This document shows positions 35,847 to 40,102 of a stretch of DNA of 64,000 nt, in pieces. The DNA is from Verrucomicrobiia bacterium. Lineage in GTDB: Bacteria; Verrucomicrobiota; Verrucomicrobiia; Limisphaerales; DSYF01. The position numbers were made by a program, and so were the translations under genes. The stretch is from the NCBI GenBank assembly GCA_035765895.1, contig DASTWL010000007.1, positions 1 through 64,000 of the forward strand, written 5' to 3'. Under the pieces are notes generated by a model. That model searched no databases and was not told where the DNA came from. It was given only the letters and a program-made list of their open reading frames with translations. Position 1 is the first letter of the stretch; each line of letters begins with the position of its first letter.

Positions 35847-35961
35847 GGCGACACAGTGCCACAGTTCCGGTGAACTTGAGAAAGACCATGTTTCTTGGCT
35901 CAGCATAACCAAAGAACATGCTTAATTGCAGAAGCCGCCAGAGCTACGGGGAACCAAATTC

Positions 35962-36051
35962 AAAGGGCTGCAAGCCCGGCAGATGATAGCCCAGGGCAAC
36001 GCCCTGGGTTCATCGTTAAAAACGATTTCAAGTCCTGTAAGGGCGACAGAA
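35962..36051 (+). repeat. Left long inverted repeat of the helicase unit
   Basis: About 90 bp. Read inward it runs CAAAGGGCTGCAAGCCC, CAGATGATAGCC, CAGGGCAACGCCCTGGG, TCATCGTT and CCTGTAAGGGCGACAG. The same order and nearly the same bases are found inverted at 40015-40102 (roughly 80% match). It contains two small palindromes of its own. Ends 43 bp before the ATG of the large gene. Confidence 0.85.
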
Positions 36052-36093: not shown

Positions 36094-39000
36094 ATGAGCC
36101 AGACCGGGAAACGAAGCCGGGAGAAGAAGGCCCTTGTGCCGCTCGCCAAATCGCATCCGCAGCTCGCGGCTCAGTGGCATCCCACCAAAAACGGCAACGT
36201 CTCGCCGGATGATGTTCAGGCGAGCAACACATCGCCTATTTGGTGGGTTTGTCCAAAAGGACACGAGTGGCAAGCGCGTCCGTGGCATCGAACCAACCAA
36301 GGCAATGCATGTCCATTCTGCGCGGGTAAGAAGTTTCTACCCGAAGATTCCTTGGCTGGGCGTTATCCCGCCATCGCTGCGGAGTTGCATCCGACTAAGA
36401 ACGGCAATACGACGCCGGATAAGTTGTTTCATCGCAGCACGAAATACTTTTGGTGGCGTTGTGCGAAGAATCCTCTGCACGAATGGAGGACAACCGTTGT
36501 CCGGCGCACTGGTCAAGGAAGCGGCTGTCCTTACTGTTCGGGTCGGCAATTGACTTCAGAGAACTCATTCGGCAGTCGCTATCCGAAACTTTCTGAGCAA
36601 TGGCATCTGACAAAAAACGGCGAGCACAAGCCCACAGATTTTCCTGCCGCCAGCAAATTCGACGCTTGGTGGCAATGTCAGAAGGTTGAGGCGCATTCGT
36701 GGAAATCAAAAATTCGTTCGCGGGCTCAACATCCTGAACTTGGTTGTCCCATCTGCTCCCGCATCGCGAGCAATTCGCGCGAACGAAAGCCGCTTTCTGA
36801 AACCCATCCTGATCTTTTGAGGGAATGGCATCCGGCCAAAAACGTAGGCGTGACGCCGAGAGATGTGCATGAGGGTTCGTCTCGGAAGGTATGGTGGCGC
36901 TGTTTGGCTAATCCATCGCACGAATGGGAGTGCAGCGTAGGAAACCGTGCCCGACGTGGGAACGGTTGTCCGTTTTGCGCGGGACAATACGCTGACGGAA
37001 CGAACTCTCTTGCCGCTCTGTTTCCACAAATTGCTGCCGAGTGGCATCCGACAAAGAATGGCGAACGCAAGCCGGACGCTGTCACGCCGGGCAGTGCGCG
37101 AAAAGTTTGGTGGAAGTGCTCGAAAAATCCAGAACACGAATGGGAAGCTCGGATACAGCCTCGAGTTAAGCGAGGCAATGGGTGTCCGTATTGTAGCTCG
37201 TGGACACTTTCACCAGAGCGGTCTCTTGCTGTGGTCTCGCCCGAATTAGCCGCCGAATGGCATCCGACGAAAAACGAACATCTAACGCCGCGTGATGTGA
37301 CAGTGGGATCTGCGCGCAAATTTTGGTGGAAATGCTCGCGTAATCCAGCGCACGAGTGGAGAACAAGTCCGAAGAACCGGAGCGTGCTCAAGAACGGTTG
37401 CCCGATTTGCAAAGTCGGCTGGACGATACCCGCGATTCGCGGCTTCGTTGATTCGCTCAAGCATCACCTCTCCACCTTCACGCCAGCCGAACTTTACGTG
37501 TTGTTTCAGCAAAACGGCTTGCTTGCTGGAGTCCGCAAGAGCCAAGCGTTTCTCGACGCGCTTGCGACAGGCCGATTCCCCTTCGACGAGATTGAGAAGT
37601 TCTGCAAGGGCGAGAAGTCGTTGGTGGATTCGTTCCTTGCGGATTCGTCGCTGACGCTGGAGGCGTTGGCGGAGCAGCAGCCGGGCGCGGCGAAGGAAGA
37701 GGAGTTGGGCGTCGTCGGCGAGGCGCAGGAGGAGAGCGCGGAGTTGCCGACGGCGGAAACAGAGAACGTGCTCAAGTCGTTGCAGTCGGCGGTGGTCGTG
37801 TCGGCAGATCAGGAGGCGGTCGAGTTTCTCGTGGCGTCGGCGCTGGCGAAAATTTGGAAGCACGCTTTCCGCGACGAGTCCGCCGCCATGGCGCAGGCGC
37901 GGGATTTCAAAGGCGACGCTTACGCGGAGCGGGTGCGGACGGAATTTCTTGCCGAGTATGAGCGCGTGAAGGCGCTGGAGATTCCGGCGGGTTATTCGTT
38001 CAAGGTGGAGGGCAGGCCGGCGCTGCCGAATCTCATGCAGCGGCTGGTGGCGTCGCGGATTCAGCACAAGCGGCGCGAGGGAAACTGGTCGGGCACGGGC
38101 GCGGGCAAGACGCTTTCGGCGGTCCTGGCAAGCCGCGTGGTCGGCGCGAAGCTGACGGTGATTTGTTGTCCGAACAGCGTGGTTGAGGGTTGGAAGGCGG
38201 CGATTTTGAACGCATTCCCGGACAGTCTGGTGGCGACGAAGACGCTCGCGCCGGATTGGGCAGCGATTGCGGGCGATGAGACGGGTTTCGGCAAAGCGGC
38301 GGCGGCGCATCGTTACGTGGTGTTGAATTACGAGGCGTTTCAGCAGGAGGATTCGGAGAAGAAGGTGCGGAAGTTCGCGAAGCAGGAGGCTGCGGGTTTC
38401 GTGGTGGTGGATGAGATTCATTTCACGAAGCAGCGGACGGCGGAGAATCTTTCCAAGCGCAAGAAGCTGGTGACGGCGTTGATCAGCTTGGCCGCCGCGA
38501 AGAATCCGCGGTTGTGCGTGCTGGGGATGTCGGCGACGCCGGTGATCAACAATTTGCAGGAGGGCAAGAGTCTGGTGGAGATGGTGTCGGGGCTGGCGCA
38601 CGACGACCTGAACACGCGCCCGACGGTGGCGCATTGCATGAAGCTGCATCAGCGGCTGGTGACGCTGGGCACGCGGTGGCTGCCGGATTACCAGATCGTG
38701 TGCGACGTGCAGACGCCGGAGGTGGATTGCGGCGAGGCCATTGAGGAGATCAAGGCACTCGGGCGCAACGGGTCCCCGCTGGCGTTGGAACAGATTCTCA
38801 CGCGCGTGCGGCTGCCGATCATCCGGCAAAGCATTCGGCCCAAGACGCTGCTTTACACGCATTACATTCAGGACATTGATTCGGCGCTCTACAAGGCGCT
38901 GGTCGAGGACGGCTGGCGCGTGGGGTTTTTCACGGGCGATGACAAGAGCGGGCTGGAGGGATTTCTGCACGGCGACGTGGATGTGCTGATTGGTTCGAGC

Positions 39001-40011
39001 GCCATCGGGACGGGCGTGGATGGACTTCAGGAAGTTTGCCAGCGGCTCGTCATCAATGTGCTGCCGTGGACGAACGCGGAGTTCGAGCAACTCAAGGGGC
39101 GCATCTTCCGGCAAGGCCAGCACGCGGACAAGGTGACGGTCATCGTGCCGATTACTTACGCGGACGTGAACGGGCAGCGGTGGTCGTGGTGCGGCTCGAA
39201 GATGCGGCGGCTGCATTTCAAGAAATCCATTGCGGACGCGGCGGTGGATGGCGTCGTGCCAGAAGGCCACTTGCGCACGTCGGCTCAGGCGTATCAGGAC
39301 GTGATGGGCTGGCTGGATCGGTTGACGACTGGGCGCGTGGAAGTGATCGAGCGTGCGCGCATCGTCGTGCCGTTGCCGCAGGATGATGGCGAGGAAGTTG
39401 AGCGGCGCGCGCGGAAGTATGGCGATTTCTCAGCGATGACCCGCACATGGAATCAGAGTCGCAGCACGACGACGCACGCGCGGCTGCGGGAGAATCCCGA
39501 GGAGTGGGCGCAGTATCACACACTATATCGTGAGGCGCGGAAGGATTGGTCAGTCGTGCCGTTTGAGGAGTTCATCCGCTGGGCGAAGCAGCGGAGTGAT
39601 TACGTCATCGGTGACTTCGGGTGCGGCGAAGCGAAAGTGGCGGAAGCGCTCGCGGACCGGCACACGGTTCATAGCTTTGATTACGTGGCCGCGAACGATG
39701 AGGTGGTCGCGTGTGACATGACGAAGACGCCGCTGGAGGATGGGACGCTCGACGTTGCGTTGTTCTCGCTCTCGCTCATGGGCCCGAACTTCAAGGATTA
39801 TCTGCGCGAAGCGTGGCGTGTGCTGAAGCTGGACGGACAGTTGCATGTGTTCGAGGCCACGTCGCGTTTTTCGGATCGTGACGCGTTCGTGGCGGGATTG
39901 AAGAAGCTTGGGTTCGCGATCGTCGAGGTGCGCGATGCGTGGAAGTTCACACATATTCGGGCAATGAAGACGGAGCGTGCGCCTGAGGCTGGCGTAGAAT
40001 TGCACTTCTGA
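36094..40011 (+). CDS. Zinc-ribbon array + SNF2-type helicase + Rrp8-like methyltransferase
   Basis: 1305 residues from the ATG at 36094; earlier codons run into the inverted repeat. Residues 15-440: six repeats of about 65-70, each LAAxWHPTKNG...WWxC...HEW...GxGCPxC, like the zinc-ribbon family PF14311 (DUF4379), likely nucleic-acid binding. 440-600: helical (FTPAELYVLFQQNG) with an acidic linker. 620-1010: superfamily 2 helicase, Walker A GTGAGKT (about 669), DEIH box (about 771), SATP (about 811), GRIFRQGQ (about 1001). 1140-1290: SAM methyltransferase with IGDFGCGEAKVAEAL, VHSFDYVA, ACDMTKTPLEDGTLDVA, SLSLMGPNFKDYLREAWRVL and EATSRF, the order seen in yeast Rrp8. The ribbon part is visibly more AT-rich than the rest. 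Single gene between inverted repeats. Defence or nucleic-acid modification is inferred; no characterised protein of this architecture is known to me. Confidence 0.85.
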   Translation: MSQTGKRSREKKALVPLAKSHPQLAAQWHPTKNGNVSPDDVQASNTSPIWWVCPKGHEWQARPWHRTNQGNACPFCAGKKFLPEDSLAGRYPAIAAELHPTKNGNTTPDKLFHRSTKYFWWRCAKNPLHEWRTTVVRRTGQGSGCPYCSGRQLTSENSFGSRYPKLSEQWHLTKNGEHKPTDFPAASKFDAWWQCQKVEAHSWKSKIRSRAQHPELGCPICSRIASNSRERKPLSETHPDLLREWHPAKNVGVTPRDVHEGSSRKVWWRCLANPSHEWECSVGNRARRGNGCPFCAGQYADGTNSLAALFPQIAAEWHPTKNGERKPDAVTPGSARKVWWKCSKNPEHEWEARIQPRVKRGNGCPYCSSWTLSPERSLAVVSPELAAEWHPTKNEHLTPRDVTVGSARKFWWKCSRNPAHEWRTSPKNRSVLKNGCPICKVGWTIPAIRGFVDSLKHHLSTFTPAELYVLFQQNGLLAGVRKSQAFLDALATGRFPFDEIEKFCKGEKSLVDSFLADSSLTLEALAEQQPGAAKEEELGVVGEAQEESAELPTAETENVLKSLQSAVVVSADQEAVEFLVASALAKIWKHAFRDESAAMAQARDFKGDAYAERVRTEFLAEYERVKALEIPAGYSFKVEGRPALPNLMQRLVASRIQHKRREGNWSGTGAGKTLSAVLASRVVGAKLTVICCPNSVVEGWKAAILNAFPDSLVATKTLAPDWAAIAGDETGFGKAAAAHRYVVLNYEAFQQEDSEKKVRKFAKQEAAGFVVVDEIHFTKQRTAENLSKRKKLVTALISLAAAKNPRLCVLGMSATPVINNLQEGKSLVEMVSGLAHDDLNTRPTVAHCMKLHQRLVTLGTRWLPDYQIVCDVQTPEVDCGEAIEEIKALGRNGSPLALEQILTRVRLPIIRQSIRPKTLLYTHYIQDIDSALYKALVEDGWRVGFFTGDDKSGLEGFLHGDVDVLIGSSAIGTGVDGLQEVCQRLVINVLPWTNAEFEQLKGRIFRQGQHADKVTVIVPITYADVNGQRWSWCGSKMRRLHFKKSIADAAVDGVVPEGHLRTSAQAYQDVMGWLDRLTTGRVEVIERARIVVPLPQDDGEEVERRARKYGDFSAMTRTWNQSRSTTTHARLRENPEEWAQYHTLYREARKDWSVVPFEEFIRWAKQRSDYVIGDFGCGEAKVAEALADRHTVHSFDYVAANDEVVACDMTKTPLEDGTLDVALFSLSLMGPNFKDYLREAWRVLKLDGQLHVFEATSRFSDRDAFVAGLKKLGFAIVEVRDAWKFTHIRAMKTERAPEAGVELHF

Positions 40012-40014
40012 TTG

Positions 40015-40102
40015 TGTCGCCCTTACAGGGCTTGGAAACATTGTGGAACGATTAACCCGGGGCGTTGCCCCGGGCTATCATCTGCGGGCTTTCAGCCCTT
40101 TG
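40015..40102 (-). repeat. Right long inverted repeat of the helicase unit
   Basis: Begins 3 bp after the stop codon of the large gene with TGTCGCCCTTACAGGGCTTG and ends in GCGGGCTTTCAGCCCTTTG. In between are CGATTAACC, CGGGGCGTTGCCCCGGG and CTATCATCTG. It is the inverted counterpart of 35962-36051. No target-site duplication is obvious outside the pair. Confidence 0.85.

What the first reader, a model, noticed from the sequence alone, without database searches (positions are those of the whole stretch)
36094..40011. Unusual single-gene system: six zinc ribbons, SNF2-type helicase and methyltransferase in one protein
Seen: six near-identical ribbon repeats with CxxC/HEW/CPxC positions, an intact helicase core (GTGAGKT, DEIH, SATP, GRIFRQGQ) and a C-terminal SAM-methyltransferase. 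Known: helicase-methyltransferase fusions occur in phage defence and in restriction-like systems, and PF14311-type ribbons occur in proteins that act on DNA. Inference: the ribbons recognise a nucleic acid, the motor translocates and the methyltransferase marks it. No nuclease motif was seen, which sets it apart from ordinary restriction enzymes.
Basis: partly seen in the sequence, partly recalled or inferred. Interest (0 to 1): 0.9.

Follow-up and report, generated by a model that had tools for sequence, protein, structure and literature searches.

The report
Mobile DNA-motor and rRNA-type methylase fusion
A single bacterial gene fuses six zinc-finger modules and a DNA-translocating motor to a methyl-transferring enzyme otherwise known from human and yeast ribosome building; it spreads between bacteria and large phages, often beside a DNA-marking enzyme, and looks like an undescribed weapon or shield in the bacterium-phage conflict.

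Summary
Window 36094-40011 is one intact 1305-aa ORF with six PF14311 treble clefs (41% mean identity to each other: homologous, not near-identical), a SNF2-fold motor with intact motifs, and a C-terminal methyltransferase.

(1) The methyltransferase is the eukaryotic rRNA m1A enzyme Rrp8/nucleomethylin: PF05148 162 bits, 42% identity to human over 153 aa, Z 29.1.

(2) The gene belongs to a patchy, horizontally moving family in five phyla, on plasmids, beside a phage terminase, and in viral contigs up to 379 kb. The motor-Rrp8 core is constant; the N-terminal modules are swapped (PF14311, DUF723-like, INT_rpt, sigma-4 HTH).

(3) In the Polyangia clade an MmeI-type DNA methyltransferase lies directly upstream in 14 of 15 testable loci, its nuclease residues lost. 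The window copy is instead an orphan between 91-bp inverted repeats, found nowhere else in ~0.73 Mb sampled of its genome, that travel with orthologues.

Best reading: a nuclease-free, DNA-acting conflict system in which swappable recognition modules steer a dsDNA translocase that delivers an Rrp8-type methylation. Anti-phage activity and the substrate (DNA or RNA) are inferred, not shown.

The parts
35961..36051 (+). left copy of a 91-nt imperfect inverted repeat with REP-like hairpins
   Evidence: 86% identical to the reverse complement of the right copy, 101 bits; DNA fold z -3.9; absent elsewhere in the ~0.73 Mb of own genome sampled, window included
36094..40011 (+). 1305-aa protein: six treble clefs, SNF2 motor, Rrp8 methyltransferase
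36148..36333 (+). treble-clef unit 1 (residues 19-80)
36358..36549 (+). treble-clef unit 2 (residues 89-152)
36574..36768 (+). treble-clef unit 3 (residues 161-225)
36799..36990 (+). treble-clef unit 4 (residues 236-299)
37015..37206 (+). treble-clef unit 5 (residues 308-371)
37231..37422 (+). treble-clef unit 6 (residues 380-443)
37972..39255 (+). SNF2-fold ATPase motor (residues 627-1054): Walker A 38092-38112, DEIH 38410-38421, SATP 38530-38541, GRIFRQGQ 39097-39120
   Evidence: AlphaFold model mean pLDDT 80.6; INO80 Z 26.9; motifs
39394..40008 (+). Rrp8/nucleomethylin-type methyltransferase (residues 1101-1305): DFGCG 39613-39627, SLSLMG 39766-39783
   Evidence: PF05148 162 bits; 2zfu E 9e-34, Z 29.1, rmsd 1.7, 200 aligned
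40012..40102 (-). right copy of the inverted repeat, beginning directly after the stop codon

Best explanation
A mobile, nuclease-free DNA-acting conflict module. SHOWN: architecture, folds, conserved catalytic motifs, horizontal spread, replaceable N-terminal modules, a conserved operon with an MmeI-type DNA adenine methyltransferase whose nuclease residues are lost in one large clade, and gene-specific inverted repeats around the window copy. INFERRED: the N-terminal array (or, in the operon clade, the partner's target-recognition domain) picks a DNA site or state. The SNF2 motor then moves along dsDNA from there. The Rrp8 domain methylates a nucleobase that the motor exposes, most likely adenine N1 as in its eukaryotic relatives. 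In cells this would block or mark invading DNA lacking the host's N6-methyladenine pattern; on phages and plasmids the same machine would protect or license the element's own DNA or disable a rival. The modification acts in place of a nuclease.
For: Motor fold SNF2, i.e. dsDNA translocases, Z 24-27. The MmeI-like gene, with TRD and LDPACGSGNF/NPP motifs, ends from about 100 nt before to overlapping the start of the fusion gene, same strand, in 14 of 15 loci with enough upstream sequence. Its PD-(D/E)XK Asp and Lys positions (placed from my knowledge of MmeI) are replaced in all copies read. The exception, L112, has a DUF2326/ABC-3C gene (PDC-M68B, weak LmuB) there instead. Other defence-like neighbours: PDC-M19A in L007, STAND-type NTPases in L012 and L066. 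Swapped N-terminal modules with a constant core: PF14311, DUF723, INT_rpt, Sigma70_r4. The array is mosaic against the core: fourfold-site differences 0.55-0.69 versus 0.22-0.40, Fisher p 2e-3 to 2e-15; GC3 0.48-0.65 versus 0.75-0.83. Horizontal transfer: core 92% identical to a genome of another family where RibD is 71%, absent from same-genus and same-family genomes. Polyangia 18 of 318 genomes. Plasmids. Viral contigs, 47-32% identity, two with terminase above cut-off.
Against: No activity has been measured. The closest solved relatives of both terminal parts are rRNA-associated: Rrp8, and trypanosome mitoribosome proteins for the treble clefs, which favours an RNA substrate. Rrp8-type enzymes are not known to methylate DNA. 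The window copy has no methyltransferase partner and no defence neighbours, and no full relative of the partner was found in its genome. Neighbour tallies had no matched control. Four of 13 partner proteins have NPPM or NPPI instead of NPPF.
Confidence: 0.45

Rival explanations
1. RNA-targeting conflict enzyme: the treble clefs bind structured RNA (rRNA, tRNA or phage transcripts), and the Rrp8 domain deposits m1A on it to stop or alter translation; the SNF2 motor works on RNA-protein or transcription complexes, as RapA does.
For: The methyltransferase is 42% identical to the human 28S rRNA m1A enzyme, including the N-terminal helical part. Yeast Rrp8 and human NML make m1A in helix 25.1 (PMC6085284). 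The only solved relatives of the treble clefs are mitoribosome proteins.
Against: SNF2 motors act on dsDNA; several swapped N-terminal modules are of DNA-binding type; PF14311 also matches phage HNH-endonuclease families; the operon partner is a DNA methyltransferase.
Confidence: 0.25
2. Primarily a mobile-element gene (phage, plasmid, TIR unit) for protecting the element's own DNA, like the methylase-helicase dyad of polyvalent proteins and DarB; chromosomal copies are residues of such elements.
For: Deep diversity lies in viral contigs; plasmid copies; terminase on the same contig; inverted repeats around the window copy; published dyad model (PMC5512222).
Against: The Polyangia operon is maintained chromosomally with catalytic motifs intact in most of 14 loci; no virion-protein context was found; the methyltransferase is not of the DarB adenine type (phrog_10089 E 0.019).
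Confidence: 0.2
3. Ordinary chromosomal function such as DNA repair, RNA-polymerase recycling or rRNA maturation.
For: The window neighbours are housekeeping genes.
Against: Rare and patchy: 3 of 196 in the order, 1 of 388 in a phylum sample, 1 of 396 around the Acidobacteria member; flanks not shared among orthologues; on plasmids and viral contigs.
Confidence: 0.05

Closest known systems
Rrp8 / nucleomethylin (PF05148), eukaryotic 25S/28S rRNA m1A methyltransferase
   Same: Whole C-terminal domain including the N-terminal helical part; motif I and CLSLMG motif; 42% identity to human; fold Z 29.1
   Different: Here it is the C-terminal domain of a bacterial/phage SNF2 protein, not nucleolar; substrate unknown; no full-score PF05148 match in 288 other genomes of the phylum
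SWI2/SNF2 ATPase-DNA methylase dyad of polyvalent proteins, DarB of phage P1 (PMC5512222)
   Same: SNF2 motor fused or linked to a methyltransferase; on phages and plasmids; no nuclease needed
   Different: Methyltransferase is Rrp8-type, not DarB-type adenine methylase; swappable treble clef / DUF723 / INT_rpt arrays; two-gene operon with MmeI-like enzyme
DISARM (DrmD + DrmMI) and BREX (BrxHII + PglX)
   Same: SNF2-type helicase beside an MmeI/PglX-like N6 methyltransferase lacking an active nuclease
   Different: DrmD model 35 bits against a cut-off of 610; other core components not seen among neighbours; Rrp8 domain and zinc array not part of those systems
Type IIL/IIG restriction-modification (MmeI)
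   Same: Partner gene aligns almost full length to a Type IIG model, 737 bits
   Different: Nuclease Asp and Lys positions lost; any restriction role would have to come from the motor-Rrp8 protein

Membership tests
Rrp8 / PF05148 methyltransferase | Score above the curated cut-off over the full domain | tested here: met
   162.2 bits, cut-off 27, positions 25-197 of 219
Rrp8 / PF05148 methyltransferase | Same fold and SAM motif I | tested here: met
   2zfu Z 29.1, rmsd 1.7; DFGCG conserved. Yeast G209R is reported catalytically dead (PMC6085284); its position here was not mapped
Rrp8 / PF05148 methyltransferase | N1-adenine methylation of large-subunit rRNA | not testable with these tools
   needs an assay
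SNF2 ATPases | SNF2 fold with SF2 motifs I-VI | tested here: met
   INO80/ISW1 Z 25-27; motifs. PF00176 itself 20.7 bits, below 24.9
DISARM | Helicase passes the DrmD equivalog model | tested here: not met
   35.1 bits against 610
BREX | PglZ and BrxC beside helicase and PglX | tested here: inconclusive
   not among the top families of neighbour scans, which list only 25 families
Type IIL/IIG restriction-modification | Active PD-(D/E)XK nuclease in the partner | tested here: not met
   Asp and Lys replaced in all copies with that region; motif positions from knowledge of MmeI
Polyvalent DarB-type dyad | DarB-type adenine methylase with SNF2 ATPase | tested here: not met
   methyltransferase is PF05148; DarB PHROG E 0.019 only in the motor region
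REP/RAYT elements | High-copy dispersed palindromes | tested here: not met
   only the two flanking copies in ~0.73 Mb of own genome sampled, window included; REPs usually over 100 per genome (PMC2817692)

The most novel reading that the evidence does not exclude
A defence system that restricts by methylation instead of cutting: a sequence- or state-directed dsDNA translocase deposits a pairing-blocking base methylation (m1A type) on invading DNA that lacks the partner's N6-methyl marks. It would be the prokaryotic/phage branch, and possibly the source, of the eukaryotic ribosomal enzyme Rrp8.
Probability: 0.15. Interest if true: 0.93.

Novelty: new variant of a known kind. Interest (0 to 1): 0.72.

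Why it matters
Helicase-methylase dyads are known, but I found no description of one that uses an Rrp8-type methyltransferase, nor of the operon with a nuclease-dead MmeI-like enzyme; the library searched lacks most subscription papers. If the DNA reading is right, this is restriction by lesion-like methylation without a nuclease. If the RNA reading is right, bacteria and phages use a eukaryote-type rRNA methylase as a weapon. Either way it gives a prokaryotic relative of Rrp8 that is about as close to the human enzyme as to the distant phage copies, which makes the origin of that enzyme testable.

Tried and rejected
NCLDV capsid (PF04451) was sought in the viral contigs because DUF723 and INT_rpt also occur in giant viruses: none found, but the control did not ring either, so this is uninformative. 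Terminase search: four contigs hit, two above cut-off; neighbour genes include phage-type families, but the viral nature of several contigs rests on IMG/VR. The long antisense ORF 37282-39270 was rejected as a gene: its open stretch has different bounds in each orthologue. Empty-site comparison failed because the RibD-side flanks are not syntenic in relatives. Weak PF05148 hits in other genomes of the phylum (47 bits and below, mostly partial matches) were taken as cross-hits to other methyltransferases. PD-T4-6 and other kinase hits in the PADLOC tally were discounted as generic kinases of Polyangia. Inverted repeats were not found around non-Verrucomicrobial members or L003; a viral-contig scan for the repeat core found nothing. 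A phage-collection scan gave only weak helicase or ribbon-only matches. I did not resolve whether human Rrp8 nests inside the bacterial tree: only one eukaryotic sequence was at hand.
Full report
THE OBSERVATION. Window 36094-40011 (+) encodes an intact 1305-residue protein. Pfam finds six PF14311 treble clefs (combined E 4.8e-110), PF05148 at 1122-1292 (162 bits, cut-off 27), ResIII and Helicase_C. The six units are 29-53% identical to each other, mean 41%. An AlphaFold model of residues 440-1305 from 19 homologues (mean pLDDT 80.6) matches nucleomethylin 2zfu at Z 29.1, rmsd 1.7 over 200 residues, and SNF2 remodellers (INO80, ISW1, SRCAP, Snf2h) at Z 24-27 over about 380 residues. So 'SNF2-type' is right by fold, although the Pfam SNF2 model is just missed by sequence (20.7 bits, cut-off 24.9).

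THE METHYLTRANSFERASE IS RRP8. phmmer finds one solved relative, the human Rrp8/nucleomethylin domain (E 9e-34). On an alignment the window domain is 42% identical to the human fragment over 153 residues, which is about as close as it is to the distant viral-contig copies (32-49%; 57% for L066, human letters taken). The match includes the helical stretch before motif I. Yeast Rrp8 and human NML methylate N1 of one adenine in helix 25.1 of large-subunit rRNA (PMC6085284). In 289 genomes of the window's phylum the only full-score PF05148 match is the window gene; all others score 47 bits or less. Substrate and product of the bacterial protein are unknown.

A PATCHY, HORIZONTALLY MOVING FAMILY. 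Relatives occur in Verrucomicrobiota, Myxococcota, Acidobacteriota, Planctomycetota and Alphaproteobacteria, on cyanobacterial and Rhodococcus plasmids, and in 12 viral contigs. Frequencies: 3 of 196 genomes in the own order, 1 of 388 in a phylum sample, 18 of 318 in the class of the Polyangiaceae member, 1 of 396 around the Acidobacteria member. The core is 92% and 83% identical in genomes of two other families where the RibD protein is 71% and 68%, yet it is absent from a same-genus and two same-family genomes. Flanking genes are not shared among orthologues. This is horizontal transfer.

VIRAL RELATIVES. Contigs of 35-379 kb carry the same motor-Rrp8 core (L066-L077). Two carry terminase genes above cut-off, one of them about 6 kb from the fusion gene (L066). 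Neighbours include AmoC/PmoC, GP88, NAMPT and DNA ligase, which suits large phages, but several contigs rest on IMG/VR classification alone.

SWAPPABLE N-TERMINI. The core is constant while the N-terminus differs: six PF14311 units in the Verrucomicrobial copies, three in every copy of the MmeI-linked clade, seven in Rhodococcus, four in Crinalium, four plus sigma-4-like HTH in L066, one plus HTH in L009, DUF723-like ribbons in L069/L070 and INT_rpt in L068/L072. Among five close Verrucomicrobial orthologues the array differs much more than the core: fourfold-site differences 0.55-0.69 versus 0.22-0.40 (Fisher p 2e-3 to 2e-15) and GC3 0.48-0.65 versus 0.75-0.83 (regional dN/dS). The change lies near codon 480. 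GC3 bias contributes to the contrast, but the array and the core clearly have different histories. This is what one expects of a specificity module; that it is one is inference.

THE OPERON PARTNER. In L006, L007, L010 and L012 the gene directly upstream is an MmeI-type DNA methyltransferase with target-recognition domain and, in L007, a SAP domain. Fetching the other members of that class extended this to 14 of the 15 loci with enough upstream sequence; the two genes are adjacent or overlapping. PADLOC ranks the partner as Type IIG (737 bits) and DrmMI (231 bits). The PD-(D/E)XK positions have lost the Asp and Lys in every copy with that region (positions placed from my knowledge of MmeI). 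Motif I is LDPACGSGNF and motif IV is NPPF in nine of 13, NPPM or NPPI in four. The one exception, L112, nests inside this clade and has an ABC-3C/DUF2326 protein instead. PDC-M19A (L007) and STAND-type NTPases (L012, L066) also lie nearby. No matched control set was scanned, so 'defence island' is not claimed.

INVERTED REPEATS AROUND THE WINDOW COPY. Two 91-nt imperfect inverted repeats (35961-36051 and 40012-40102, 86% identical) bracket the gene; the right one begins directly after the stop codon. They contain hairpins (DNA fold z -3.9). They match nothing else in about 0.73 Mb of the own genome (window included) or 0.43 Mb of the Baikal genome sampled. Orthologues L002 and L005 carry the pair, L057 carries it with a degraded left copy, and L003 lacks it. 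In 150 random control pairs the best score was 27 bits against 101 here. The gene therefore appears to travel as a unit bounded by its own repeats. No transposase or target-site duplication was identified.

HOW IT PROBABLY WORKS. Shown: the parts above. Inferred: the array or the partner's recognition domain selects a DNA site, the SNF2 motor tracks dsDNA, and the Rrp8 domain methylates an exposed base, probably adenine N1; in the operon clade the partner's N6-methyladenine marks self. The strongest counter-evidence is that both terminal parts have rRNA-associated solved relatives, so an RNA target keeps a quarter of my belief. A mobile-element self-protection role, like the published methylase-helicase dyad (PMC5512222), is the other serious rival.

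NOVELTY. I place it as a new variant of the helicase-methylase kind. It fails the DrmD cut-off, the partner fails the nuclease test, and the methyltransferase is not DarB-type. Paper searches for PF14311/DUF4379, PF05148 and Rrp8 with bacterial conflict terms found no description, within a library that lacks most subscription journals.

Noticed in passing
window 35961-36051 and 40012-40102: Gene-specific 91-nt inverted repeats with REP-like hairpins directly bracketing one gene, conserved with orthologues at other loci; a possible one-gene mobile unit without a visible transposase.
   Followed up: partly
window 36094-37446 versus 37530-40011: Sharp change in GC3 and synonymous divergence between the ribbon array and the core among close orthologues, suggesting mosaic origin.
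   Followed up: yes
L009:142-4914: Planctomycetales member with an 800-residue N-terminal extension holding RNA polymerase alpha-CTD-like and sigma-4-like domains and one treble clef.
   Followed up: partly
L012:12140-16153: STAND-like NTPase (1338 aa) immediately downstream of the fusion gene; PADLOC gives only a weak match to an Argonaute-associated protein.
   Followed up: partly
L010:11712-12143: Acidobacteria copy is frameshifted inside the methyltransferase and its MmeI partner is interrupted too; MAG error or decay.
   Followed up: no
L011:1132-2724: Orthologue diverges abruptly within the motor region into unrelated sequence; pseudogene, chimera or assembly error.
   Followed up: no
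L067-L077 neighbourhoods: A contig among these viral records carries an AmoC/PmoC-like gene near the fusion gene, recalling methanotroph-infecting large phages.
   Followed up: no
window 37282-39270 (-): 662-aa antisense ORF over the motor; bounds not conserved in orthologues, so taken as a high-GC artefact.
   Followed up: yes
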